A stretch of 64,000 bases of DNA, taken from contig NZ_CP016616.1 of NCBI RefSeq assembly GCF_002741015.1, positions 4,614,501-4,678,500 on the forward strand. Direction: 5' to 3'. Below the pieces are notes generated by a model that did not search any database, was not told the origin of the DNA, and saw only the letters and a program-made list of their open reading frames with translations. Both the position numbers and the translations under genes were made by a program. This DNA is from Microvirga ossetica (GTDB lineage: Bacteria; Pseudomonadota; Alphaproteobacteria; Rhizobiales; Beijerinckiaceae). This document shows, piece after piece, positions 4,374 through 57,794 of this stretch (within the stretch, counting starts at the first letter, position 1; every line of letters starts with the position of its first letter).

Positions 4374-6785
4374 ATGATCGCTTCACATGATCTCCCGCGC
4401 GCGGTCGAGGACGGCACAAGCCCTGGTTCGGAAGGCTCCGCGAACGCTCTTCCGCCGGTTGGCCTTCTCATCGTACCCGTGCGCAACACGGTCCTGTTCC
4501 CAGGAACCGTGTTCCCCATTGCTCTTGGCCGTGAGCGCTCCATCGCCGCGGCCCAGCAGGCGGTGAGGGAAGAGCGTCAGATCGGCCTCCTGATGCAGCG
4601 GGACGCGGAGGTGGCCGACCCGGCCGCGGTTGATCTGCACAGAACCGGCACCATCGCTAACATCCTGCGCTATGTGAATGCGCCCGACGGCACGCACCAT
4701 GTCGTCCTCCAGGGCGAGCAGCGCTTCCGGGTCACCGAGTTCGTGAAGGAGCGGCCGTTCATCGTGGCGCGGGTTCTCCGGATCGAGGAGCCGGGGATGC
4801 TGACACCGGACATCGAGGCCCGCTTTCTTCACCTCCGGCAGCAGGCACTTGAGGCGCTGCAGCTCCTGCCGCAGGTGCCGCAGGAGCTTGTCGGGACCGT
4901 GCAGGCCGCCGCCACGCCCGGGACTTTGGCGGACCTCGTTGCGGCCTATCTCGATGTCAGTGCTGACCAGAAGCAGGAGCTTCTGGAAACCATTGATCAC
5001 ACCACGCGGCTCGACAAGGTCTCCCGCCTGCTGGCGGAACGGATCGAGGTCCTGCGCCTGACGCAGGAGATCGGCCGTCAGACCCGGGCCACCCTGGACG
5101 AACGCCAGCGCGAGGTGATCCTGCGCGAGCAGATGGCGGCGATCCAGCGCCAGCTGGGCGAGGGCGACGGGCGCGCCCAGGAGGTCCAGGAGCTCACCGA
5201 GAAGATTGCGAAAGCCACCATGCCGCCGGAGGTTGAGGAGCAGGCCCGCCGGGAGCTGCACCGCTACGAGCGCATGCCGGAAGGCGCCATGGAGGCCGGG
5301 ATGATCCGGACCTACCTCGATTGGCTGGTCGAACTGCCCTGGGCGCTGCCCGAGGAGAAGCCCATCGATATCGCGCAGGCGCGCCGCATCCTCGACGAGG
5401 ACCATTTCGGGCTTGAGAAGATCAAGCAACGCATCATCGAGTACCTCGCCGTGCGTAGGCTCGCCCCGAACGGCAAGGCGCCGATCCTGTGCTTTGCTGG
5501 CCCACCCGGCGTCGGCAAGACTTCCCTTGGGCAGTCGATTGCCCGCGCCATGGGGCGGCCCTTCGTGCGGGTCAGCCTCGGCGGCGTCCACGACGAGGCG
5601 GAGATCCGCGGCCACAGGCGCACCTATGTGGGCGCTTTGCCGGGCAACATCATCCAGGCGATCAGGAAGGCTGGCGCGCGCGATTGCGTGATGATGCTGG
5701 ACGAGATCGACAAGATGGGACGCGGCGTCCAGGGCGATCCCTCCGCGGCCATGCTGGAGGTGCTTGACCCTGAGCAGAACGCCACCTTCCGCGATAACTA
5801 TCTGGGCGTTCCGTTCGACCTCTCGCGCGTGGCGTTCATCGCTACCGCCAACATGCTCGACACCATTCCGGGTCCCCTGCGCGACCGCATGGAGATCATC
5901 ACCCTTGCTGGCTACACCGAGGACGAGAAGCTTCAGATCGCCCGGCGCTACCTGGTTCGGCGCCAGCTGGAAGCGAACGGGCTTAAGGCCGAGCAGGCCG
6001 AGATCAGCGACGAGGCCTTGCGCCGGATCATCCGGGATTACACCCGCGAAGCCGGCGTCCGGAACCTGGAGCGCGAGATCGGCCGGGCCCTGCGCCACGC
6101 CGCCGTGCGGATCGCGGAGGGCAGCGCCGAGCACGTGCGCATCGACGCCGGGGATCTCGCCGCAATCCTCGGTCCGGTCCGCTTTGAGGACGAGGTGGCG
6201 ATGCGCACCAGCGTGCCAGGGGTCGCCACAGGTTTGGCGTGGACGCCGGTGGGCGGCGACATCTTGTTCATTGAGGCCAGCCGTGCGCCAGGCAAGGGAG
6301 GCCTTATTCTCACGGGGCAGCTCGGCGATGTTATGCGTGAGAGCGCACAGGCGGCGATGACCCTGGTGAAGAGCCGCGCCGCTTCATTCGGCATTGATCC
6401 CGCCCTATTCGAGAAGAGCGACATCCACATCCACGTTCCTGCGGGAGCCACTCCGAAAGATGGCCCAAGTGCGGGCGTGGCCATGTTCACGGCGCTTGTC
6501 TCGCTTCTGACGGGCCGGACGGTGCGCAGCGACACCGCCATGACGGGGGAGATCAGCCTGCGCGGGCTTGTCCTGCCGGTGGGTGGTATCAAGGAAAAGG
6601 TCACGGCGGCCGCGCGGGCGGGGCTCACCCGGGTGATGCTCCCGGCCCGCAACCGGCGCGACTTCGAGGACATCCCCGAGGATACGCGGGCCCGGCTTGA
6701 GTTCATTTGGCTGGAGCGGGTCGACGAAGCCATCGCGTCCGCCCTGGAGGACAAGCCGACGGATGTGCCGGATGCTGCCGAGTAG
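4374..6785 (+). CDS. lon: ATP-dependent Lon protease (LonA type)
   Basis: 803-residue soluble AAA+ serine protease. The N-terminal LON substrate domain (about 28-215, LLIVPVRNTVLFPG) is followed by a coiled coil and an AAA+ domain with Walker A GPPGVGKTS near 375. The C-terminal protease has the Ser-Lys dyad: S699 in DGPSAGVA and K740 in GGIKEK. Length is normal for LonA. It degrades misfolded and regulatory proteins in the cytosol. The 12-base gap to hsp20 and the divergent Clp-type disaggregase make this a second, accessory-looking Lon linked to stress proteostasis; whether the genome also has a housekeeping lon cannot be seen here. Confidence 0.97.
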   Translation: MIASHDLPRAVEDGTSPGSEGSANALPPVGLLIVPVRNTVLFPGTVFPIALGRERSIAAAQQAVREERQIGLLMQRDAEVADPAAVDLHRTGTIANILRYVNAPDGTHHVVLQGEQRFRVTEFVKERPFIVARVLRIEEPGMLTPDIEARFLHLRQQALEALQLLPQVPQELVGTVQAAATPGTLADLVAAYLDVSADQKQELLETIDHTTRLDKVSRLLAERIEVLRLTQEIGRQTRATLDERQREVILREQMAAIQRQLGEGDGRAQEVQELTEKIAKATMPPEVEEQARRELHRYERMPEGAMEAGMIRTYLDWLVELPWALPEEKPIDIAQARRILDEDHFGLEKIKQRIIEYLAVRRLAPNGKAPILCFAGPPGVGKTSLGQSIARAMGRPFVRVSLGGVHDEAEIRGHRRTYVGALPGNIIQAIRKAGARDCVMMLDEIDKMGRGVQGDPSAAMLEVLDPEQNATFRDNYLGVPFDLSRVAFIATANMLDTIPGPLRDRMEIITLAGYTEDEKLQIARRYLVRRQLEANGLKAEQAEISDEALRRIIRDYTREAGVRNLEREIGRALRHAAVRIAEGSAEHVRIDAGDLAAILGPVRFEDEVAMRTSVPGVATGLAWTPVGGDILFIEASRAPGKGGLILTGQLGDVMRESAQAAMTLVKSRAASFGIDPALFEKSDIHIHVPAGATPKDGPSAGVAMFTALVSLLTGRTVRSDTAMTGEISLRGLVLPVGGIKEKVTAAARAGLTRVMLPARNRRDFEDIPEDTRARLEFIWLERVDEAIASALEDKPTDVPDAAE

Positions 6786-22778: not shown

Positions 22779-23250
22779 GCGCAGAATGCCTCGGTGGATC
22801 TGCGATTGATCTAAGAGAATTTCCCGTTTGGCATATGTAATAAAATAAAGTTACTAAGTGGGCCCGAAATCGGTCGTATCTTACGACTAGCCTTTACGCA
22901 TCACGAACGCGATTGAGTCTATGAGGGTGTCCCGCACAGTAATTTGCTGAGGACCGTCCGCGACCTGTCATTCAATTGTGAAGCTCGAGTTTTGGCACGA
23001 CGCGGAAGTAAACCGAATGTCCACTCGAGCAGGGAGCACCGGACGTTCCTGCCGAGCAGTGAATTTCCTCGGATGACCCCAAGCTGACCTTTGAGGGAGT
23101 GCTCAGCGTTAGTGTCTGCACTTCCACCAAATTAACCATGAAGTGAAAGATTGCCTTTCAAGTGGTCCAGCGTCGTAGACGGCACCGCCCACGCTGATCA
23201 ACATGGCTCCTGAGCATGCGACAGGGCTGGGGACCACCGAGGGCACTGTC
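22779..23250. other. Intergenic region between divergent FadR operon and TAXI lipoprotein
   Basis: About 470 bases with lower GC near 22830-22860 and no convincing reading frame on either strand. It must contain the promoter of the rightward lipoprotein gene; I could not assign one. A GAGGG ribosome site lies 7 bases before ATG 23251. Confidence 0.4.
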
Positions 23251-24465
23251 ATGTTTCGTCCCGTATGGCTGCTCGTGGCGGCAGGTCTTTGTTTGAGCTT
23301 GGAGGGGTGCTCCAACGAGGTCCCTCGCACCGTGGCGGCTGTCGGGCAGACCACGGCGGCTGCTCCCACGCATGCCCCGCCTGTTTCAAAGGTTCCATCC
23401 CGGCAGGCCACGGTATCGCAGCAGGCCACAGTACCGACACGCGAGAAGTCCCCGTTCATCGTCCTTGCGGGTGGCGATGGGCTCGCCGATGACCTTCTCG
23501 TTGCCAACCTTGCCACAGCCCTTGAGCGCAATCACCTCCACCTCCGGCTGGAGAGGAGCAAGGGACCTGAGCGAGACCTTCTCACGCTCCTCAACAATCC
23601 CGATATAGATGTCGCGCTCATTCCAACGGATGCCATCGAGTCCCTGCCTCGCCGAGTGCGAGCAGGTGCTCATGAGCGCCTTCGTTACCTTTTCCGGGTT
23701 CCGAGTCAGCGACTGCACATCTTAGCCCGAATTGACATCACGAACATTTATGACCTCAACGGGCGTAAGATCGACATAGGCCAGCCAGGCAGCGGCAGCT
23801 ATCTGACGGCGCGCCTCATCTTCGACAAGCTTGGGATCAAACCGGAATTCACGACCTCCGATCAGGCCACGGCGTTTCAGCACCTCCATTCGAACACGAT
23901 CCAGGGGATGGTTCTTCTCACCTCGGAAACGTCGAAGGAGGTTCTCGCATTTGAACCTGGTGGAGCCTATCACCTCGTACCCATCTCGTTTGAGACGATC
24001 GCTTCTCCGTTGGAAGAGCTTATTGTCCATTATGCTCCAAGCCAGTTTACGGCCGAGGAATATCCTAATCTTGTCGACCACGGCCACCCGACCGACACGA
24101 TCGCGGTCAGTCGTGTGCTTGCACTCCGCAACTGGCTTGAGGGAAACGCCCATTACGAGCGTCTCGCTGATTTCAACGAGGCTCTTTCGACCTATTTGTT
24201 CGAAGGGTTTCTGAAGTCAGCCGACAACGGAACCAATCCGGCCGAGCAGGCGCTTGGTTGGAAACGTTTCCGGCCGACCGAGATCCTGCTCGCGCGTAGA
24301 GCCCAACAGGCTGAAGAGCATCGTGCGTTTGAGGAGTTTACGGGGGCACAAGGCACTTGTCCCTTGCCGGACGCAGCAGCGCGCGAGCGCCTGTACAACG
24401 ACTTTCTGGCGTGGCGGAAGGCCCGCGGACAAGATCCGAGCTCTGCTGGTTCTGACATGAGATGA
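23251..24465 (+). CDS. TAXI-family solute-binding lipoprotein (orphan)
   Basis: 404 residues. A lipoprotein signal peptide ends in the lipobox LEGC (Cys near residue 20), followed by a Pro/Thr-rich linker to about 65. The remainder matches TAXI-type TRAP binding proteins: GDGLADDLLVANLATAL, DIDVALIPTDAIESLP, LNGRKIDIGQPGSGSYLTAR. Normal TAXI proteins are soluble periplasmic partners of a fused DctQM permease; here there is membrane anchoring by lipid and no TRAP permease within 20 kb. It may act as a sensor or serve a distant transporter. The start follows GAGGG. Confidence 0.82.
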   Translation: MFRPVWLLVAAGLCLSLEGCSNEVPRTVAAVGQTTAAAPTHAPPVSKVPSRQATVSQQATVPTREKSPFIVLAGGDGLADDLLVANLATALERNHLHLRLERSKGPERDLLTLLNNPDIDVALIPTDAIESLPRRVRAGAHERLRYLFRVPSQRLHILARIDITNIYDLNGRKIDIGQPGSGSYLTARLIFDKLGIKPEFTTSDQATAFQHLHSNTIQGMVLLTSETSKEVLAFEPGGAYHLVPISFETIASPLEELIVHYAPSQFTAEEYPNLVDHGHPTDTIAVSRVLALRNWLEGNAHYERLADFNEALSTYLFEGFLKSADNGTNPAEQALGWKRFRPTEILLARRAQQAEEHRAFEEFTGAQGTCPLPDAAARERLYNDFLAWRKARGQDPSSAGSDMR

Positions 24466-24911: not shown

Positions 24912-26471
24912 ATGCGGACTTGGACTGGCTTGGTTCTACGGCGCGGCCGGTTGTTCGTGATGGCGGCAGGCATGGCATTTCTGCCAGGAGTGGCCGAGGC
25001 GCAAACCATCCAGCGAGAGAGGATCACGAACGCGCTGCCCAGACTCGAGGCCATGATCGACAGGATCATCGCGGCCAAAGAGGTGCCGGGCTTGTCCATC
25101 GCCATCATCCATGATGATGAGGTCGTCTACCGCAAGGGTTTCGGCCTGCGCGAGATCGGCAAACCCGACATGGTCGGTGCCGACACGGTGTTCCAGATCG
25201 CATCCCTGTCGAAGCCCGTGTCCTCGACCGTCGTGGCGGCGCTGGTGAGTGAAGGGATTATCTCGTGGGACAGCCGGCTCGCGGATATCGATCCTGCCTT
25301 CCGCTTGGCTGAGGCTTACCCGACGAGCATGATCACGATCCGCGATCTGTTCGCCCATCGCAGTGGACTTCCGGGTGGCGCCGGCGACGACCTCGAGGAG
25401 ATCGGTTACGGTCGTGACGAGATCCTTCAGCGTCTGAGGCTGCTGCGCCCGGCCTCCAGCTTTCGCTCAGCGTACGCCTATAGCAACTTCGGTCTCACGG
25501 CCGGGGCGGTAGCGGCCGCGAAGCCGACGGGCCGATCCTGGGAAGATGTCGCCGAGGAGAAACTCTTCCGACCGCTTAGGATGACGTCGACCAGTTCCAG
25601 GCATGCGGACTTTCTCGCGCGACCGGATCGGGCTGCCTTGCACATCAGGGACAATGGCGGTTGGGCTGCGAAGGTGCGGCGCAATCCGGACCCGCAGGCG
25701 CCGGCCGGCGGAGTCAGCTCCACGGTCGGCGATCTGGCAAACTGGGCACGCCTGGAACTCGGCCGCGGAATGTTCGACGGGAAGCGCCTGATCGCCGTTA
25801 ATGCCCTCGATCAAACCCACGAGCCTCTGATGTCTCGTGGCCCTAATCCGGTCACACAGGCCCAATCATTCTACGGGCTTGGCTGGAATGTGGAGTTCGG
25901 ACGGCATGGACTGACATGGGGGCATGCGGGGGCCTTCAGTACGGGTGCGCGCAGTCTCGTCACTCTCTATCCGAAATCGGGCCTCGGGATCGTGGTGCTT
26001 TCCAATGCATTCCCGACTGGAGTTCCCGAAGGTGTGAGCGACAGCTTTGCCGACATGGTCTTTGACGGGGAGGTCAGCACGGACTGGGTGACAGCTTGGG
26101 ATAAGGCTTATGCCGGGCTGTTTGGGCCGGCGATCGGGGCGGCGAAGGCAACCTATGCCAAGCCTCCGGTACCGCGAAGTCCCCCCCTTGCGCCCGAGGC
26201 CTATGAAGGGCGTTATGCCAATCCTTACGTTGGTGAGGCCATCGTGAAACGCGAGGCAGGAGGTCTTGTGCTGAAGGTCGGGCCGGGAGAGGGGCAAACC
26301 ACTGCCCTGCATCACTTCGATCGCGATCTGTTCCTCACCTATCCCGGCACAGACATGCCCGAAATGCCCTCGGAGGTCCGGTTCTCAATCGGCCCAGACA
26401 GCCGAGCGACGGCGGTGACGATCGATTTCCTAGACGGAAGCGGCGTTGGCACCTTGCGGCGGGCTCCTTAA
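24912..26471 (+). CDS. Secreted serine hydrolase, class C beta-lactamase/esterase fold
   Basis: 519 residues. A signal peptide ends AEAQT near residue 31. The serine-active-site fold is complete: SLSK with nucleophile S98 and K101, YSN near 190, and an HAGAF third motif where beta-lactamases carry KTG. A C-terminal domain of about 100 residues (from EAYEGRYANPYVG, DUF3471-like) follows the catalytic domain. Such proteins are mostly esterases, D-aminopeptidases or peptidoglycan-related enzymes; true beta-lactamase activity is not implied. It acts in the periplasm or outside. The tail gene on the other strand is convergent. Confidence 0.88.
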   Translation: MRTWTGLVLRRGRLFVMAAGMAFLPGVAEAQTIQRERITNALPRLEAMIDRIIAAKEVPGLSIAIIHDDEVVYRKGFGLREIGKPDMVGADTVFQIASLSKPVSSTVVAALVSEGIISWDSRLADIDPAFRLAEAYPTSMITIRDLFAHRSGLPGGAGDDLEEIGYGRDEILQRLRLLRPASSFRSAYAYSNFGLTAGAVAAAKPTGRSWEDVAEEKLFRPLRMTSTSSRHADFLARPDRAALHIRDNGGWAAKVRRNPDPQAPAGGVSSTVGDLANWARLELGRGMFDGKRLIAVNALDQTHEPLMSRGPNPVTQAQSFYGLGWNVEFGRHGLTWGHAGAFSTGARSLVTLYPKSGLGIVVLSNAFPTGVPEGVSDSFADMVFDGEVSTDWVTAWDKAYAGLFGPAIGAAKATYAKPPVPRSPPLAPEAYEGRYANPYVGEAIVKREAGGLVLKVGPGEGQTTALHHFDRDLFLTYPGTDMPEMPSEVRFSIGPDSRATAVTIDFLDGSGVGTLRRAP

Positions 26472-26560: not shown

Positions 26561-28630
26561 CTAATAACCGGTCAGCTCATCGGCCTTCGGTGGGTGGGGC
26601 ACGGGTTGTCCGAGAACCCTCGACATGATTGTCCCGAGAGTTGCAGCATCGTTGTCGAAGCCGCCATGCGAGCGAGATGCGGTCTTGCCACCGATGCCCG
26701 TCGAGTAAGCGACCTCAAGCTTCGAGTGGGAGGGAAGCTCCCGCACATAGGTCTGCATTCCGGCAATCGGCGTATTCGGCATCTGCTCATAGGCACGCGA
26801 GACCAGATACAGCAGGGAGCGGCTGTAGGACGGCAGCAGGGGAACGTTGGCGGAAACAGTATCATCCTGCTCCAACTGGTCCGTCAGATTGTATAGGTAG
26901 ATCCGGTCTTGTAACTTCAACGCGCCTTTGCCGGTCAGATAGGGCTCATAATGTTCCTTGAAAAACGCAACCGTGCAGGCCGGCGCCATCAGCTGGATCG
27001 TTCCGAGCTCGAGCTTGCTCAGGTTGAACCGTCCCAAGGCGGAGAGCAGGTATCCGAGCACATTTGCACCGGCGCTGTGCCCGACGAGATGTAGCTTCGG
27101 GCGCCGAGGCGCTTTGTCGAGGCCGGACAGCAATGGCGACAATCCCTTGAACCCGCCATCGTACTCGGATCTGCGGCTGAAGGACATCAGCGCATCTTGT
27201 TTCATGTTTCGCCAGGCGTATGAACCGGTCTGCTTTCCGATGCCGGCCTCAAAGAACCAGTCGGACAACGCGCCGCCGATGCGGCCGACGGCAGGCGACC
27301 GGGACAGCTGCCCGAACACCTCATCGATGAACCCTGAATCCCACATCAGATGGAAATTGTAGAGGCGGTTCCGGCCATAGATATTGTTCCGCTTCCAGGT
27401 CGCAATGCGCTGGGCCTCGGCCCCGAGCGGGTTCAGGCCACCATGCGCATAAATGATGAGGTGCTCATAGCCGAGATTGTCATTCGCGTCGGCTTTGGTC
27501 AGGCGCTCGACGGTCTCCTGCATCTCGGTCGCTGTCGGCGAGCCGTACTTGCCCGCCGTGACGAGGAGCCCGTCATCGATGTTGACGAAATGGCCGACGA
27601 TGTCGCCTCGGGTTGGCTCGTTGGAACCGAAGAGACCCGTTGTGCTCGTTGGCGTTGCGCCTGGAGCGGCCCCGAATGCCGCCGGGGCGCGGACACCGAG
27701 CTGCAGCACCCACGCGTCCATGATCGTGTTCGCCCAGTCCGCATAGATCCACTTCGCAACGCCGTTCACGCCCCAGTCCGGCCCCCAGGAGTTTAGGACC
27801 CAGAAGCCCGTGTCGTCGTATCCCACGATCGCAAAGGCATGGCCTCCGACGGAATCGCCGCCGGGCTCGATGAGATCGTCCTTCGGGTTCTCCCAGTGCG
27901 AATGGATCTGCGCGGACACGTAGATCACGCCGATCTCATTGAGCGCCGCATGGTAGTCGCTGATATCCGGCTGAAGCCGGAAATAGGCGCCCAGCCGGGT
28001 TTCCCGAGCTTCCTTCGCCATGACATAGGTGAGCGCCCAATCTTCGATCCCGGGCTTGTCCGGCGCGGTGGCATCGGTGCAAACGCCGCTCTGGTAAAGA
28101 CCCTTGATCGCTCCGCGCAGGCTCGATCCTTCGTAGGCCGTGCCCTCCCATTCGTCGTTGCGCTTCGCCATCTCGTAGAGCATGCGCGAGCTCACCGGCT
28201 CCGGCCGGTCGGGACCGATTTCCCGGCACCGCAGGAAGTCGATCACATGCGCCAAGGCAAAGCCCGTGCAACTTGAGTCCTTGCCTTGGTCCCGGACGGG
28301 AAATGCAATTCGCGGGTAGATGCCGGGATGGAGGGATCTCAGGTGGGGAAGATAGATGCGATCCCGGATGTCGGGCATGTCGGGGAGGATGTCGAGCACA
28401 TGGGCCCCGAGTTTCTTGCTCACACCGGCGAACGCGCGATTGCCAACTTGGATCCCTGTCGTAATCGGCGTCGTCGATGTGCTTGCATCGGTGGGAACGC
28501 TGTCGGGGACCGCTGCGGGCGCGGACCGTGGGGCGTTGCGGATCGTGGCCGGCCGGGAGGAGGAAACATCGGACCGGCTAGTCTTCCGCGATCCTTTCCC
28601 GGAGTTCGATTGGGCTCTTGCTCGCGCCAT
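26561..28630 (-). CDS. Papain-like peptidase fused to alpha/beta hydrolase
   Basis: 689 residues. Residues 1-60 are Ser/Arg/Thr/Pro-rich and disordered, with no signal peptide. A C1A-type peptidase domain (about 75-315) has the oxyanion Gln Q115 and nucleophile C121 in VRDQGKDSSCTGFALAHV, catalytic H264 in GGHAFAIVGYDD and N280 in LNSWGPDWGVNG. A second domain (about 340-660) has an IYAHGGLNPLG oxyanion-type strand and a GHSAG nucleophile elbow with S519. Candidate acid residues lie near 587-589 and a His at 655. I know both families but not this combination. The product may be an effector or a self-processing hydrolase. Confidence 0.8.
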   Translation of the reverse strand: MARARAQSNSGKGSRKTSRSDVSSSRPATIRNAPRSAPAAVPDSVPTDASTSTTPITTGIQVGNRAFAGVSKKLGAHVLDILPDMPDIRDRIYLPHLRSLHPGIYPRIAFPVRDQGKDSSCTGFALAHVIDFLRCREIGPDRPEPVSSRMLYEMAKRNDEWEGTAYEGSSLRGAIKGLYQSGVCTDATAPDKPGIEDWALTYVMAKEARETRLGAYFRLQPDISDYHAALNEIGVIYVSAQIHSHWENPKDDLIEPGGDSVGGHAFAIVGYDDTGFWVLNSWGPDWGVNGVAKWIYADWANTIMDAWVLQLGVRAPAAFGAAPGATPTSTTGLFGSNEPTRGDIVGHFVNIDDGLLVTAGKYGSPTATEMQETVERLTKADANDNLGYEHLIIYAHGGLNPLGAEAQRIATWKRNNIYGRNRLYNFHLMWDSGFIDEVFGQLSRSPAVGRIGGALSDWFFEAGIGKQTGSYAWRNMKQDALMSFSRRSEYDGGFKGLSPLLSGLDKAPRRPKLHLVGHSAGANVLGYLLSALGRFNLSKLELGTIQLMAPACTVAFFKEHYEPYLTGKGALKLQDRIYLYNLTDQLEQDDTVSANVPLLPSYSRSLLYLVSRAYEQMPNTPIAGMQTYVRELPSHSKLEVAYSTGIGGKTASRSHGGFDNDAATLGTIMSRVLGQPVPHPPKADELTGY

Positions 28631-28669
28631 GAAGTCACCGCAGCAGTCGATCGCCCCCGCAACATCATC

Positions 28670-28978
28670 TCACGCCCCAGGGTAGCCGTCGACTGGGGGA
28701 ACCTGGTTTTCGACGGAGATTGGCGGCGGAATATCGGGTGTGGGCCGGATAAGGAATATCTGACGGTGGCAGCGGCGGAATGTCGGGATCAGGCCTGTCG
28801 GACATAGATCACACCGTTCGTTTGTCTGTTCCTTAGCAAATCGATGAACGGCATCGTCGGGCCGCATTGAGGCAAAGATCTGCCGACAAGCCAGCTCAGA
28901 ATAGGCTTCAATCTGATCCAATGAGGAACGGATCGCCTCGGATTCAGACCACCGGAACGGCAACCATCGCTTGGACAT
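28670..28978 (-). CDS. Hypothetical protein upstream of the peptidase-hydrolase
   Basis: 102 residues from ATG 28978, ending 40 bases before the fusion gene on the same strand. The first half is helical and amphipathic (SEAIRSSLDQIEAYSELACR), the second half contains CDLCP and a proline-rich end. The CxxC could bind metal. There is no homology that I recognise, and the ribosome site is weak, so the gene itself is uncertain. If real it is the likely operon partner of the peptidase-hydrolase. Confidence 0.35.
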   Translation of the reverse strand: MSKRWLPFRWSESEAIRSSLDQIEAYSELACRQIFASMRPDDAVHRFAKEQTNERCDLCPTGLIPTFRRCHRQIFLIRPTPDIPPPISVENQVPPVDGYPGA

Positions 28979-29845: not shown

Positions 29846-30640
29846 ATGAAGCCAATGAAGAAGCATAGGCGAGTTTCACCAACACTGCTGAGCTTAGCCT
29901 TGATATCGGGCTTAATGCTTGCCAGTGCCGGGCTTCGGCTCCCAAACGCGCACGCTGCTACTACTGGCAGCCAGGAGCCTCACTCCTTCACAAAGGAAAT
30001 CCGCAAGTCCGTGACCCTCAACTACCTCCTCTACGTTCCGTCAGGATACGGGCAGGACACGAGCATGCGCTGGCCGTTGATCCTGTTCCTCCACGGAGCC
30101 GGAGAGCGCGGCTCCGATCTCGAAAAGGTCAAAGCCTATGGTCCACCCAGACTGGTATCAGAAGGCCAGGAACTGCCCTTCATCATTGTCTCTCCACAGG
30201 CTCCGGAGCGCACCACCTGGGATCCGGACGCGCTTAATGCGCTTCTTGACGAGATTGTCGGCCACTACGCTGTCGATGAAGGCCGGATCTATCTGACCGG
30301 TGTCAGCATGGGAGGTGCTGGAGCCTGGAGGTTGGCTTCAGCTTACCCGGAGCGCTTTGCTGCTACAGCGCCGATTTGTGGGGTGGGGGATCCCAGCACG
30401 GCCCGGCGACTCGCGAAAATTCCAACATGGGTGTTTCATGGCGCCAAAGATGACCTTGTCCCGCTCCAGGCGAGCCAGGAGATGGTTGATGCCTTGAGGG
30501 AGGTTGGAAACGCAGCGAAGTTTACAATCTATCCCGATGCCGGGCACGATTCTTGGACACCGACCTACAACAATCCCGCCCTTCTTGATTGGTTTTTGAA
30601 CCAGAAACGGCAGGCGCCCAGTGTTTCTCACCTTAGGTGA
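29846..30640 (+). CDS. Secreted prolyl-oligopeptidase/esterase-like hydrolase
   Basis: 264 residues. A signal peptide ends AHAAT near 39. The alpha/beta hydrolase core has oxyanion strand LILFLHGAGERG, nucleophile GVSMGGAGAW, acid WVFHGAKDDLVP and His in AGHDSWT. The set matches the COG4099-type 'predicted peptidase' group related to feruloyl and carbohydrate esterases. It probably hydrolyses an ester in the periplasm. ATG 29855 is an alternative start. Confidence 0.88.
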   Translation: MKPMKKHRRVSPTLLSLALISGLMLASAGLRLPNAHAATTGSQEPHSFTKEIRKSVTLNYLLYVPSGYGQDTSMRWPLILFLHGAGERGSDLEKVKAYGPPRLVSEGQELPFIIVSPQAPERTTWDPDALNALLDEIVGHYAVDEGRIYLTGVSMGGAGAWRLASAYPERFAATAPICGVGDPSTARRLAKIPTWVFHGAKDDLVPLQASQEMVDALREVGNAAKFTIYPDAGHDSWTPTYNNPALLDWFLNQKRQAPSVSHLR

Positions 30641-49577: not shown

Positions 49578-49609
49578 GATGCCGCCGCTCTCCGGCGGCA
49601 TCTTCATTT
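49578..49609 (+). terminator. Hairpin in the purC-tyrS gap
   Basis: GATGCCGCCG / CGGCGGCATC, a perfect 10-bp stem with a 5-base loop, then TTCATTT. It lies 60 bases before tyrS, so it can end purC transcription or act as an attenuator in a tyrS leader. Confidence 0.6.
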
Positions 49610-49661
49610 GGTGATCGGGTCTCCGGGCAGCGGCTTTAGCCAAACCCCAAGGAGACAGACG

Positions 49662-50915
49662 ATGAATACCCCGAAATCCGAATTCCTGAAGACGCTCGTC
49701 GAGCGCGGCTTCATTCATCAATGCACCGACTTCGAGGCGCTCGACGCGCAACTCTCGTCCGGGCCCGTCGCCGCCTATATCGGCTTCGATGCCACGGCAG
49801 ACAGCCTGCATGTGGGCAGCCTCGTTCAGATCATGACCCTGCGCTGGCTGCAGAAGTGCGGCCATAAGCCGGTCGTGCTCATCGGGGGCGGCACCACGCA
49901 GATCGGCGATCCGAGCTTTCGCGATGCGAGCAGGCCGCTGCTCGACGATGGGCAGATCGCCAGGAATGCCGCGGGTTTGAGGCAGGTCTTCTCCCGTTAC
50001 CTCGCCTTCGGCGACGGGCCGACGGATGCGGTGATGGTGGACAATGCCCTCTGGCTCGATCCGCTTAGATATCTCCCTTTCCTGCGCGATTTCGGCACTC
50101 ATTTCACCATCAACCGGATGCTGAGCTTCGACAGCGTGCGCCAGCGGCTCGAGCGCGAGCAGCCGCTGACGCTGCTCGAGTTCAACTACATGGTGCTCCA
50201 GGCTTTCGACTTTCTCGAATTGTCGCGCCATCACGCCTGCGTGCTGCAGATGGGCGGCTCGGACCAATGGGGGAACATCGTCAACGGCATCGAGCTCGCC
50301 CGCCGCATCGATCAGCGCCAGCTCTTCGGTCTGACGACGCCGCTGCTCACCACGTCGGCAGGCGCCAAGATGGGCAAGACGGCCTCCGGCGCCGTGTGGC
50401 TCAATGCGGAAAAGCTCGGTCCTTACGAGTTCTGGCAGTTCTGGCGCAATATCGAGGACGACGATGTGGCGCGCTTCCTGCGCCTCTTCACCGAGCTGCC
50501 GCTCGACGAGGTTCATCGCCTCGGAGAGCTGCAGGGTTCGGAGATCAACGAAGCGAAGCGGATTCTCGCGATGGAAGCGACGAGGCTGGCCCATGGCGAG
50601 AAGGCGGCGCGCGAAGCCGCCGACACGGCACGGCGCGCCTTCGAGGATGGCGAGAATGCCTTAGGCCTGCCCAGCATCGGCCTGTCCCAGGCCGAACTGG
50701 ATACGGGCGTCACCATCGCGCAGCTTCTCGTTCGCGCGGGCCTTTCGCCGTCGAAGAGCGAGGCGCGCCGCCTCGTTCTGAACAATGGCGCGCGGCTCAA
50801 CGGAGCGCTCGTGCAGGACGCGGATGCGCAGGTCGGCACCGCGGATCTCGCCGACGGAGCGCTGAAGCTGACGGCGGGCAAGAAGCGGCATGTGCTGGTT
50901 CATGTGAGCGATTGA
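49662..50915 (+). CDS. tyrS: Tyrosyl-tRNA synthetase
   Basis: 417 residues, class I synthetase. N-terminal [20 protein letters not shown] holds the HIGH-type [20 protein letters not shown] binds tyrosine; KMGKT near 236 is the KMSKS loop. A C-terminal S4 RNA-binding domain (about 350-415, [18 protein letters not shown]) is present. ATG 49662 follows AAGGAGA. Single gene between two hairpins. Confidence 0.97.
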
Positions 50916-54564: not shown

Positions 54565-55020
54565 CTATCGCGTTGAAGTCTTGCCCAGCGCTCCGAACTT
54601 CGCGTCGGGCTTTGCTGGCGCAGGCGTCGCATCGTCGTTCGCCAGCTCCTCCAGGATCGGACATTGCGGACGCCCATCGCCGTGGCAGGTTCTGGCGAGA
54701 TGCTTCAGGGTCGACGCCATTTCCTGCAATTCGCGGATCTTGCGTTCGAGCACGCTCACATGTTCGAGCGCGATCGTCTTCACATCCTTGCTCGCCCGCT
54801 CCCGGTCCTGCCAGAGCGAGACGAGATCGGCGATCTGCTCGACCGAGAAGCCGAGATCTCGCGCGCGGCGGATGAAGCGCAGTGTATGCACGTCATGCTC
54901 GGAATAGACCCGGTAGCCGGATTCCGTCCGCACGATCTTCGGCATCAGGCCGATGGATTCGTAATAGCGGATCATCTTGGCCGAGACGCCCGAGGCGGCA
55001 GCTGCCTGTCCGATATTCAT
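54565..55020 (-). CDS. cueR: Copper-responsive MerR-family regulator CueR
   Basis: 151 residues. A MerR winged helix ([38 protein letters not shown]), dimerisation helix and metal loop with two cysteines ([11 protein letters not shown]), the Cu(I) ligand pair of CueR. A disordered Ala/Pro tail follows. Its ATG overlaps the copA stop as ATGA, so it is made from the copA transcript. It would activate the promoter in front of copA by DNA distortion. Confidence 0.94.
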
Positions 55021-57542
55021 GCGACACCTCCGGCGGTCCGAGCAACGGGAGCAGCTTCCGGCATCGTCCTGACCGGCGCCGTGAAGCGACGCAGGCGCAG
55101 GGCGTTTCCGAGAACGAAGACGCTTGAGAGCGCCATCGCACCCGCCGCGAAGATCGGCGAGAGCAGTGTGCCGTCGAGCGGATAGAGCACGCCGGCGGCG
55201 ACCGGGATCAGCAGCACGTTATAGGCGAAGGCCCAGAACAGGTTCTGCCGGATATTGCGGATCGTCGCCTTCGACAGGGCGATGGCATTCACGACGCCGC
55301 GCACGTCGCCGGACATGAGCACCACGTCGGCGCTCTCGATGGCGATGTCGGTGCCGGTGCCGATGGCAATGCCGATATCGGCTTCCGCGAGCGCAGGCGC
55401 ATCGTTGATGCCGTCGCCGACGAAGGCGATGCTGCCATGTGTATTACGCAGCCGCTTCAGGGCGTCGACCTTGCCGTCGGGCAGAACCTCGGCGATCACC
55501 TCGTCGATGCCGATCCGCTTGGCGATGGCCTCGGCAGTCCTGCGGTTGTCGCCGGTGATCATCGCGACCTTGAGGCCCAACGCATGGAGCGATGCAATCG
55601 CCTCCGGCGTCGAGGGCTTGACCGGGTCGGCGACCGCAACGATGGCGGCGAGCCTGCCGTCGATGGCGGCATAGAGCGGGCTCTTGCCCTCGGTCCCGAG
55701 ACGGGAGGCCGCACCCGAAAGGGCGGATACATCGAGCCCGAGCTTTGTCATGAAGCGGTCGGCTCCCACGTCGACCTTGCGCCCCTCGACCCGTGCCGAG
55801 ACGCCGAAGCCGGGCACGGCCTCGAAGCTTTCCGTCGACGGAAGCGACAGGCCGCGTTTCTCGGCCGCCGCAACGATGGCCTGCGCGATCGGATGCTCGG
55901 AGCGGCTTTCCACGGCCGCGACGAGCCGCAGGGCGTCCGCTTCCGCGAATCCCTCGGCGGTGACGAAGTCCGTCAGCTCCGGACGCCCGAGCGTCAGGGT
56001 GCCGGTCTTGTCGAGGGCGACGACATCGACTTCCTTCAGGCTCTGCAGAGCCTCACCCTGCCGGAAAAGCACCCCGAGTTCCGCCGCGCGGCCCGTGCCG
56101 ACCATGATCGAGGTCGGTGTCGCAAGTCCCATGGCGCAGGGGCAGGCGATGATCAGCACCGCCACGGCATTCACCAGCGCGAAGGTCATGGCCGGCTCTG
56201 GGCCGAAGATCAGCCAGATCAGGAAAGTGAGGGCGCCGGCCGCGATCACGGCCGGCACGAACCACGCGGTCACCCGGTCGACCAGGGCCTGGATCGGCAG
56301 CTTTGAGCCTTGGGCCTGCTCGACCATACGGACGATCTGGGCAAGCACAGTGTCGGCGCCGATGCGGGTCGCGCGGAAGGTGAAGCTGCCGGTCTTGTTG
56401 ATTGTGCCGCCGACGACCTCGGCGCCTTCCATCTTCTGCACTGGCACCGGCTCGCCGGTGATCATCGACTCATCCACGAAGGAGGAGCCCTCGATAACCT
56501 CGCCGTCGACCGGGATCTTCTCGCCGGGGCGGACCTGGACGATGTCGCCGGCGAGCACCTGATCGAGCGGGACCTCGCGGGCCTCACCGTCGCGCAGGAC
56601 GCGGGCGGTCTTGGCCTGCAGCCCCATGAGGCGCTTGATCGCCTCGGAGGTGCGGCCCTTCGCCTTGGCTTCGAGATAGCGCCCGAGCAGGATCAGCGTC
56701 ACGATCACCGCGGCGGCCTCGTAATAGACGTTGTCCATGCCGGCGGGCAGGGCACCGGGCAGGAAGGTGGCCACCACCGAATAGGCATAGGCGGCGCTGG
56801 TGCCGAGAACGACGAGCGAGTTCATGTCGGGCGCGCGTCGCAGGAGGGCAGGGATCCCTTTGCGGAAGAAGCGCAGGCCCGGACCGAACAGGACCAGGGT
56901 GGTCAGGGCGAATTGCAGGTACCAGCTCGTCCGGTGCCCGAGCGTGCCCATCACCCAATCGTGGATCGCCGGGACGAAGTGCGAGCCCATTTCGAGGATG
57001 AAGACGGGCAGGGTGAGGACCGCCGCGAGCAGCAGCGCGTGTTGCAGGCCGGCAATCTCGGCCTCGCGAGCCGCCCGTTCGTGGTCGGTCACGGTGCTGT
57101 CCTGGCGCAGCTTGGCTCCGTAGCCGGTCTGCTCGACGGCAGCGATCAGCCGCCCCGCCACGTCCGAGCCGCCGAGATAGCGGACCGACGCCCGCTCGGT
57201 GGCGAGATTGACATTGGCCTCGATCACGCCGGGAACGCGCTCCAACGCCTTCTCGACCCGGTTGACGCAGGAGGCGCAGGTCATGCCTTCGATCGTCAGG
57301 TCGAGCGATTGGGCCGAGGGCTCATAGCCCGCCGCCCGGATCGCGTCCGCCACGGCGACCGGGTCTGCCGTAGCCGGGGCGAATTCCACATGCGCCCGCT
57401 CCGTCGCCAGGTTGACATTGGCGGCCGTCACGCCAGCGACGGAACGGATCGCCTTCTCCACGCGGCCGACGCAGGAAGCGCAGGTCATCCCCTGAATCGG
57501 AATGTCGATGGAATCGGTGGGGGCAAGGTTGCCGGCGGCCAT
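55017..57542 (-). CDS. copA: Cu(I)-exporting P1B-type ATPase
   Basis: 841 residues. Two N-terminal HMA domains with C21/C24 and C89/C92 (GMTCASC in each), eight membrane helices, actuator motif TGEP, transmembrane CPC (IACPCAMG near 465), phosphorylation site DKTGTLT near 510, and GDGINDAP in the hinge. Pumps Cu(I) to the periplasm. ATG 57542 follows AGGAG; longer starts lack a site. The upstream CueR promoter and downstream cueR make a self-contained copper response. Confidence 0.97.
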
Positions 57543-57573
57543 GGTTAATCTCCTGATCCTCATATGGGAACAG

Positions 57574-57604
57574 GGTGTAATCCTTCCAATGATGGGAAGG
57601 TCAA
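57574..57604 (-). promoter_or_regulatory. CueR-type promoter of copA
   Basis: Minus strand: -35 TTGACC (57604-57599), a 19-base spacer, -10 TACACC (57579-57574). The spacer holds the dyad CCTTCC-catcatt-GGAAGG (57582-57600), which fits the consensus ACCTTCC-N7-GGAAGGT of E. coli copA and cueO boxes. The over-long spacer is the hallmark of MerR-activated promoters. Confidence 0.9.
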
Positions 57605-57794
57605 GCGGGCTCATAAAAGCCATTTCCGGCTTTGCCGGCGAACGGGCCCCTGCATCGCCCGGTAGGAACCATGCCTACGCCTGGGTCATTGATCCGACAC
57701 GTTCGGCAGGTAGGCGGGCACGAGCGATTTCCCGCTTGTGCCGGATGCTGCGGTGCTTTTAGCTTTTCACGAACGATTGAGCCGGTACTGACCT

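What the first reader, a model, noticed from the sequence alone, without database searches (positions are those of the whole stretch)
26561..28978. Papain-like peptidase fused to an alpha/beta hydrolase, with a small partner frame
Both active sites look complete (C121-H264-N280; S519 in GHSAG). The N-terminus is disordered and lacks a signal peptide. A 102-codon frame with CxxC lies 40 bases upstream. I know no described enzyme with this arrangement. Possible uses: toxin or effector activated by proteolysis, a cytosolic defence enzyme, or a polyester/peptide processing enzyme.
Basis: partly seen in the sequence, partly recalled or inferred. Interest (0 to 1): 0.7.

Follow-up and report, generated by a model that had tools for sequence, protein, structure and literature searches.

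The report
Papain protease fused to lipase-like hydrolase
A soil bacterium carries one member of a widespread, little-studied family of enzymes that join a papain-type protein-cutter to a lipase-like enzyme; relatives that add cell-wall-cutting parts or use a caspase instead suggest, but do not show, that it helps a cell dismantle itself or an invader on cue.

Summary
26561-28630(-) encodes 689 aa: disordered N-terminus, xylellain-like C1A protease with a probable prosegment, then an alpha/beta hydrolase with Ser-acid-His in canonical order. Both halves are under strong purifying selection, and 202 of 230 homologues in hand carry both, so the fusion is neither an error nor unique. The 'small partner frame' has no counterpart beside fetched relatives and partly resembles a GNAT acetyltransferase: probably a gene remnant. 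The hydrolase family recurs between a cell-wall amidase and a caspase in one chain (hhalign probability 100, E 1e-60). Some C1-hydrolase relatives are fused to a muramidase or chitinase-like domain, or sit beside SGNH hydrolases, wall hydrolases, a trypsin-nuclease fusion, haem peroxidases or MnxG-like oxidases: 27 of 81 C1-bearing loci, but not the window's, nor any of its 11-row subclade. Best reading: a cytosolic, zymogen-controlled protease-lipase effector of a self-lysis or defence module in which papain and caspase are alternative proteases (about 0.4). Function is inferred, not shown. My searches of an open-licence library listed no paper on the papain-hydrolase fusion.

The parts
26561..28630 (-). 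C1A papain-like peptidase / alpha-beta hydrolase fusion gene, 689 aa
   Evidence: homologues; dN/dS
28460..28630 (-). Residues 1-57: low-confidence, fast-evolving N-terminus without a visible leader
   Evidence: pLDDT; dN/dS 0.27-0.86 against three Microvirga orthologues
28340..28459 (-). Residues 58-97: probable prosegment
   Evidence: model residues from 70-72 on align with propeptide residues of procathepsins B, K, L and with pro-papain, mature forms start near 89-100; xylellain aligns from 58
27683..28339 (-). Residues 98-316: C1A peptidase domain; C121 codon 28268-28270, H264 27839-27841, N280 27791-27793
26564..27619 (-). Residues 338-689: alpha/beta hydrolase domain; S519 codon 27074-27076, D590 26861-26863 (acid not certain), H655 26666-26668
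   Evidence: fold search; conservation; secondary structure
28670..28978 (-).
   Evidence: no counterpart beside fetched relatives; residues about 12-44 hit frames of 171-201 aa in several same-genus genomes, one of them a GNAT by Pfam (pairwise E 9e-9)

Best explanation
A cytosolic two-headed hydrolase made as a zymogen: an N-terminal prosegment blocks a xylellain-type C1A protease, and the C-terminal alpha/beta hydrolase is a lipase/esterase-like enzyme, probably acting on membrane lipid. When a trigger (infection, damage, a partner protease) removes the prosegment, the protease cuts cell proteins or frees its own and partner effector domains, and the hydrolase damages the membrane, so that the cell is killed or lysed. 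Some relatives carry the wall-cutting step in the same chain or the next gene; the window's copy is a solo version. SHOWN: the fusion, its conservation, intact protease residues and a conserved Ser and His in the hydrolase, predicted folds, purifying selection on both halves, homology of the hydrolase to the one in amidase-hydrolase-caspase proteins, partner genes at a third of the loci examined. INFERRED: zymogen state, lipid substrate, lysis, trigger, defence role.
For: (1) The hydrolase is homologous over 324 columns to the middle domain of Amidase_2-hydrolase-caspase proteins (hhalign probability 100, E 1e-60; shared HGGL, GHSxG, LE..D, HGGFD.D blocks). That family is large (1311 homologues of L107 at E<=1e-3, 115 of the 120 listed carrying both PF00656 and PF01510 by my count); the consensus of the 15 aligned starts close to the amidase, with no leader. 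(2) C1-hydrolase relatives are fused to a muramidase (L102, 207 bits), a chitinase-class-I domain (L099, 38.5 bits, over the cut-off; L100, 22.6, below it) or, weakly, a phage-lysozyme-like domain (L088, below the cut-off). (3) Same-strand neighbours within about 40 bases: SGNH hydrolases at seven loci (L060, L061, L069, L070, L073, L082, L103), wall amidase at L034, M15 peptidase at L035, and at L066 an overlapping trypsin-Endonuclease_NS gene whose trypsin part scores against a PADLOC model named 'nacht' (E 1.8e-15). (4) Published parallels: trypsin-endonuclease LypC is needed for lysis in Caulobacter (PMC13236601, passages); caspase with alpha/beta hydrolase in conflict systems, and NucA-trypsin systems, mostly alphaproteobacterial (PMC7159879, passages and section 32); amidase-metacaspase proteins proposed for cell death (PMC3501461, passages). 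(5) Patchy distribution: 11 of 385 alphaproteobacterial genomes, the window's included, and no shared flanks with the fetched Microvirga loci.
Against: The window's locus has none of these partners within 3 kb, and neither has any of the 11 rows of its own subclade; 54 of 81 C1-bearing loci have none (several loci have short flanks). The partner list was drawn from these same loci, so 27 of 81 is descriptive, not a test. The SGNH partner family is absent from the window's genome and found in 10 of 30 genomes or records searched. PADLOC has no model for the protein. Some partners are oxidases (haem peroxidase, MnxG-like, tyrosinase), which do not obviously fit lysis, and some neighbours are plainly ordinary. 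No STAND/NACHT-type NTPase, EAD or Death-like domain appeared among the Pfam hits of the proteins scanned. The hydrolase Ser is lost in 12 of 129 relatives while the protease residues never are, so lipolysis is not always needed. Substrates are unknown.
Confidence: 0.4

Rival explanations
1. An activating convertase: the papain domain's job is to switch on partner enzymes made as inactive precursors (SGNH hydrolase, wall hydrolase, nuclease, haem peroxidase, tyrosinase, MnxG-like oxidase), and the hydrolase domain is partly a binding or regulatory module.
For: The protease residues never vary while the hydrolase Ser is lost in 12 of 129 rows, seven of them in the trypsin-C1 group that sits beside MnxG-like genes. 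Partners are chemically diverse but sit directly beside the gene. Proteolytic gating of pro-nucleases is published for other defence systems (PMC12799240, passages).
Against: 54 of 81 C1-bearing loci, the window included, show no such neighbour within 3 kb; in 117 of 129 rows the hydrolase Ser is kept, and the hydrolase is under purifying selection.
Confidence: 0.2
2. A secreted or injected interbacterial effector, its wall- and membrane-attacking parts aimed at rivals.
For: Wall hydrolase, lipase and protease combinations without leaders are typical of such effectors (general knowledge); one relative is fused to a muramidase.
Against: The T6SS sheath protein VipB was not found in the window's genome and was found in 6 of 30 genomes or records carrying the family (two are single plasmids and some are MAGs). 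No small neighbour recurs that could be an immunity gene, among frames of 80 aa or more. Other secretion systems were not searched.
Confidence: 0.15
3. A metabolic or housekeeping enzyme: protein and ester (storage polymer, peptide ester) turnover in the cytosol.
For: Solo gene at 54 of 81 loci by the partner scan; window neighbours are a beta-lactamase-fold hydrolase, an NMT1/TAXI-type binding protein and an esterase-like hydrolase.
Against: Rare and patchy (11 of 385 genomes; 7 of 61, both counts including the window's genome). No neighbour family recurs at more than 15 of the 62 loci clustered, and that one is a mix of ABC-type ATPases at varying distances. Caspase, wall hydrolase and nuclease company in some relatives.
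Confidence: 0.15
4. An artefact: two genes fused by an error, or a decayed gene.
For: None found.
Against: Both domains in 202 of 230 proteins in hand and, by HMM, in 74 of 81 C1-bearing loci; dN/dS 0.06-0.13 in each half.
Confidence: 0.01

Closest known systems
Amidase_2-metacaspase ('caspase family') proteins, e.g. of Polaromonas naphthalenivorans (PMC3501461, passages seen; a protein of that species is P0305)
   Same: Homologous alpha/beta hydrolase domain with the same motif blocks in a chain with a cysteine protease; no leader in the consensus of 15.
   Different: The protease is a C-terminal caspase rather than an N-terminal papain, and a wall amidase is fused. The passages I saw name amidase and caspase but not the hydrolase between them.
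Caspase plus alpha/beta-hydrolase pairs in NTPase conflict systems (PMC7159879, passages seen)
   Same: A cysteine protease accompanied by an alpha/beta hydrolase, suggested to operate together.
   Different: Caspase, with the hydrolase in a neighbouring gene, in MoxR-vWA systems; no papain-hydrolase fusion in the passages seen. Whether their hydrolase is the same family was not tested.
NucA-trypsin systems and LypABC (PMC7159879 section 32; PMC13236601 passages)
   Same: Intracellular protease-effector fusions of alphaproteobacteria; one relative (L066) has a trypsin-Endonuclease_NS gene overlapping its C1-hydrolase gene.
   Different: No nuclease or trypsin within 3 kb of the window gene; not a member.
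Xylellain (PDB 3ois), C1A protease of Xylella fastidiosa
   Different: No hydrolase domain in the solved chain.
Lipase-type alpha/beta hydrolases (Archaeoglobus lipase 2zyr, Nir2 DDHD domain 9jyx, dienelactone hydrolase 9bld)
   Different: 10-14% identity and many tied rows; the substrate cannot be read from the fold.

Membership tests
Peptidase family C1A (papain) | Gln-Cys-His-Asn active site | tested here: met
   Q115, C121, H264, N280 invariant in 133-row alignment, gaps aside
Peptidase family C1A (papain) | Papain fold and Pfam PF00112 above cut-off | tested here: met
Peptidase family C1A (papain) | Proteolytic activity, cleavable prosegment | not testable with these tools
   only structural correspondence of residues from about 70 to propeptides
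Alpha/beta hydrolase superfamily | Nucleophile elbow, then acid, then His, each after the expected strand | tested here: met
DUF900 (PF05990) | Pfam match over the cut-off | tested here: not met
   no hydrolase family at E<=1 for the window protein; a relative scores 17.0 bits against 20.5; some listed homologues carry PF05990 precomputed
Hydrolase of amidase-hydrolase-caspase proteins | Homologous hydrolase domain | tested here: met
   hhalign probability 100, E 1e-60, 324 columns
Hydrolase of amidase-hydrolase-caspase proteins | Amidase and caspase in the same chain | tested here: not met
   window protein has neither; the nearest of two caspase-domain matches in the genome lies about 124 kb away
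NucA-trypsin / LypABC system | Trypsin plus Endonuclease_NS next to the gene | tested here: not met
   no such partner within 3 kb of the window gene
NucA-trypsin / LypABC system | NLR-like (STAND) partner | not tested
   no dedicated search was run
T6SS effector | T6SS in the same genome | tested here: not met
   no VipB match in G000
Known anti-phage system | PADLOC model match | tested here: not met
   0 families at E<=1 for the window protein
EAD-recruited effector | Effector-associated domain | not tested
   no EAD-specific search beyond Pfam

The most novel reading that the evidence does not exclude
A prokaryotic 'cathepsin arm' of programmed self-lysis: one modular machine (wall hydrolase + lipase-like hydrolase + cysteine protease) in which evolution exchanges a caspase for a papain-type protease as trigger or executioner, parallel to the caspase and cathepsin arms of animal cell death.
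Probability: 0.25. Interest if true: 0.8.

Novelty: new variant of a known kind. Interest (0 to 1): 0.55.

Why it matters
It puts a domain architecture to a large uncharacterised family hidden behind the label 'C1 family peptidase' (2347 homologues at E<=1e-3; the 120 listed all hit both domain models) and ties it by homology to amidase-caspase proteins long suspected in bacterial cell death. It gives a testable prediction: papain and caspase are interchangeable protease parts of one lytic kit. It also offers candidate wall, lipid, nuclease and oxidase partners for bench work.

Tried and rejected
Artefactual fusion: rejected. Small frame as antitoxin, immunity protein or inhibitor: not supported. 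T6SS effector: not supported as a general explanation. Phage gene: weak matches over the C1 part only, in 3 of 50,697 phage records; in plasmids, 25 of 72,556 records match and 8 cover at least 80% of the query. Caspase presence in 19 of 30 genomes or records: not used as evidence, since no background rate was measured. GC content: 57-64% in 1-kb steps, no island signal. In the fold re-alignments each list was filled by one domain, so nothing is concluded from families that are not listed. The viral structure library was never searched.

Dropped rows and limits: searches scored only the 8000 candidates sharing most words; 120 are listed for each. The 230 proteins are P0001 and the listed rows, and one search was limited to proteins of about 198-630 aa, which favours truncated ones. 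A1 used 42 of the 120 rows plus P0001; A2 has 33 rows and A3 122. Gene calls are my greedy longest-ORF calls and include spurious frames (L044 and L053 downstream look spurious), and two of 64 inputs (L004, L023) gave no main gene there; so re-scanned 85 loci stop-to-stop, leaving out the duplicates and fragments listed in its script. The tree used 76 of the 85 (those with at least 200 hydrolase residues); I put L110 in its 'caspase' group although no caspase is seen in L110's short flank. L087's lysozyme-like part rests on similarity to L088, whose own Pfam score is below the cut-off; L100's chitinase-like domain is below its cut-off too.

Full report

ACTIVE SITES. In 133 rows (62 loci plus 71 listed proteins, some of them fragments) the protease residues Q115, C121, H264 and N280 never vary, gaps aside; S519 is Ser in 117 of 129 and H655 His in 120 of 127; the acid is D584 (Asp 97, Glu 16 of 128), E587 (119 of 128) or D590 (119 of 129). 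E587, D590 and H655 have counterparts in the caspase-linked family (E491, D494 and H561 of P0232, invariant in 15). The 12 rows without Ser are L016, L017, L018, L056, L060, L065, L066, L067, L068, L070, L071 and L072; seven of these (L017, L018, L065, L067, L068, L071, L072) belong to a group in which a trypsin domain lies in front of C1 and the hydrolase is not recognised by my model, or only barely (L067, 3e-4).

THE FUSION IS OLD AND COMMON. 2347 homologues at E<=1e-3, not all necessarily fusions; the 120 listed all hit both of my domain models. Of 230 proteins in hand (P0001 included) 202 hit both; 28 hit only the hydrolase and by eye mostly begin at methionines internal to the gene, so they look like truncated calls; P0161 may be a real standalone. 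One scan of genome contigs gave 53 loci, in Alpha- and Gammaproteobacteria, Planctomycetota, Acidobacteriota, Myxococcota and Sumerlaeota (labels). It is rare per genome: 7 of 61 (E<=1e-3), 11 of 385 of the class (E<=1e-20) and 16 of 398 of the phylum (E<=1e-20; 4 of these show only the hydrolase); each count includes the window's genome, and G323 is in the last two. The DNA match to the four nearest fetched Microvirga loci (two genomes, each fetched twice) covers the gene and 63-81 bases upstream, with no shared flank. dN/dS against L021 and L022 is 0.06-0.07 in each half and 0.27-0.30 in residues 1-57.

THE SMALL FRAME. It has no counterpart beside the gene in any of the loci held at the time: the best tblastn match other than itself has E 0.26. 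In the genus, 16 of 48 genomes, the window's included, gave some match at E<=0.1, mostly weak; a recurring one covers residues 12-44 and falls in frames of 171-201 aa, one of which is a GNAT acetyltransferase (18 of 32 identical, E 9e-9 in a two-sequence comparison). The same genome holds a 73% copy with a stop on contig 3. The likeliest reading is a gene remnant.

COMPANY OF RELATIVES. I re-scanned 85 loci (81 with the C1 domain, the window included; 4 with the hydrolase only) with 26 reference sequences of 14 partner classes drawn from Pfam hits at these loci. 27 of 81 C1 loci have a partner fused or within 3 kb; 54 have none, among them the window and the other ten rows of its 11-row subclade in the tree. 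Because the classes came from the same loci, this describes and does not test; loci from the genome search have flanks of only about 1.5 kb. Fused: muramidase (L102), chitinase class I (L099; L100 below the cut-off), lysozyme-like (L088 below the cut-off; L087 by similarity), trypsin (L017, L018, L065, L067, L068, L071, L072). Adjacent: SGNH hydrolase at seven loci, its GDS, GND and D..H blocks invariant in the seven rows aligned (six of these loci and L032, where the gene lies about 6 kb off); haem peroxidase (L016, L064, L081; in pieces near L061); wall hydrolases (L034, L035, divergent at L013); trypsin-nuclease and tyrosinase (L066); trypsin, YLATT and an SGNH-caspase gene divergent at L014, the last 3.7 kb off. 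Beside the trypsin-C1 fusions lies a 2400-residue protein; L065's is related to the manganese oxidase MnxG (E 3.7e-59), the other six match L065's. The SGNH family profile finds nothing in the window's genome and something in 10 of 30 genomes or records. Ordinary same-strand neighbours (LysR and AraC regulators, luciferase-like, aldehyde dehydrogenase, histidine kinase) also occur.

THE LINK TO CASPASES. In two genomes (L107, L108) the same hydrolase family lies between Amidase_2 and a caspase domain in one chain; in L109 the hydrolase gene ends one base before a caspase gene. A search with L107 found 1311 homologues at E<=1e-3. Profile comparison of the two families gives probability 100, E 1e-60 over 324 columns, with HGGL, GHSxG, LE..D and HGGFD.D in common. 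In a tree of 76 hydrolase domains L107, L108, L109 and L110 (no caspase seen beside the last) form one group (97/82) next to the muramidase-fused L102 and L019 (83/90), and lie inside a 20-row group that also holds all five rows labelled wall-hydrolase fusions (99/96). The window's clade of 21 is separate (100/100), and its placement beside that group is weak (83/30). The root is a midpoint and one row (L066) is very long.

READING. A protease, a lipase-like enzyme and a wall hydrolase, joined in interchangeable ways and without visible leaders where I looked, make most sense as a lysis kit kept silent by zymogen control. The 2012 survey of prokaryotic caspases already called one amidase-lipase-caspase chain 'a highly destructive weapon' and linked amidase-metacaspases to cell death (PMC3501461, passages). 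Trypsin-nuclease LypC is one of three proteins essential for gene-transfer-agent lysis in Caulobacter (PMC13236601, passages). The papain version would extend this to a second protease class. For the window's solo gene the inference is by homology only, and its closest kin show no partner.

LITERATURE. Ten searches were answered. Those aimed at the fusion or its parts listed no paper that, by title or start of abstract, describes a C1-hydrolase fusion; two searches were for the words YLATT and xylellain. Searches returned nothing at all, and the library holds open-licence papers only. [quoted passage not shown] The xylellain paper itself was not held; only its title was seen. A classification of papain-like proteinases was seen in passages only and did not contain the words lipase or DUF900 (PMC10318531).

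Noticed in passing
L107 559-3426(+), L108 577-3318(-): Amidase_2 - alpha/beta hydrolase - caspase in one chain; a large family whose middle domain gave no Pfam hit in these two.
   Followed up: partly
L065 1344-8780(-), also beside the genes of L017, L018, L067, L068, L071, L072: About 2400-residue proteins related to the Mn oxidase MnxG encoded beside trypsin-C1 fusions in Rhodobacterales-type genomes; why a protease accompanies them is unexplained.
   Followed up: partly
L064 5586-7538(+), L016 4019-5902(+), L081 3-1418(+): Animal-type haem peroxidase genes about 60-73 bases upstream of C1-hydrolase genes at three loci (L081 by similarity to L064).
   Followed up: partly
L069 8948-9946(+), L070 8822-9811(+), L014 189-2099(-): SGNH hydrolases share a short N-terminal stretch (about KITxxELxxxLxDPxxP) outside the Pfam matches; in L014 it heads an SGNH-caspase chain. 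Possibly an adaptor.
   Followed up: no
L039 6584-8380(+), L041 8360-10159(+): Unknown protein of about 598 residues, 11-16 bases downstream of the C1-hydrolase gene in two Planctomycetota, no Pfam hit.
   Followed up: no
window 24912-26471(+), 29846-30640(+), 23203-24465(+): Neighbours: beta-lactamase-fold serine hydrolase with DUF3471, esterase/depolymerase-like hydrolase, NMT1/TAXI-type binding protein.
   Followed up: no
window 4374-6785(+), 49608-50915(+), 55017-57623(-): Lon protease, tyrosyl-tRNA synthetase, heavy-metal P-type ATPase: ordinary genes in the same window.
   Followed up: no
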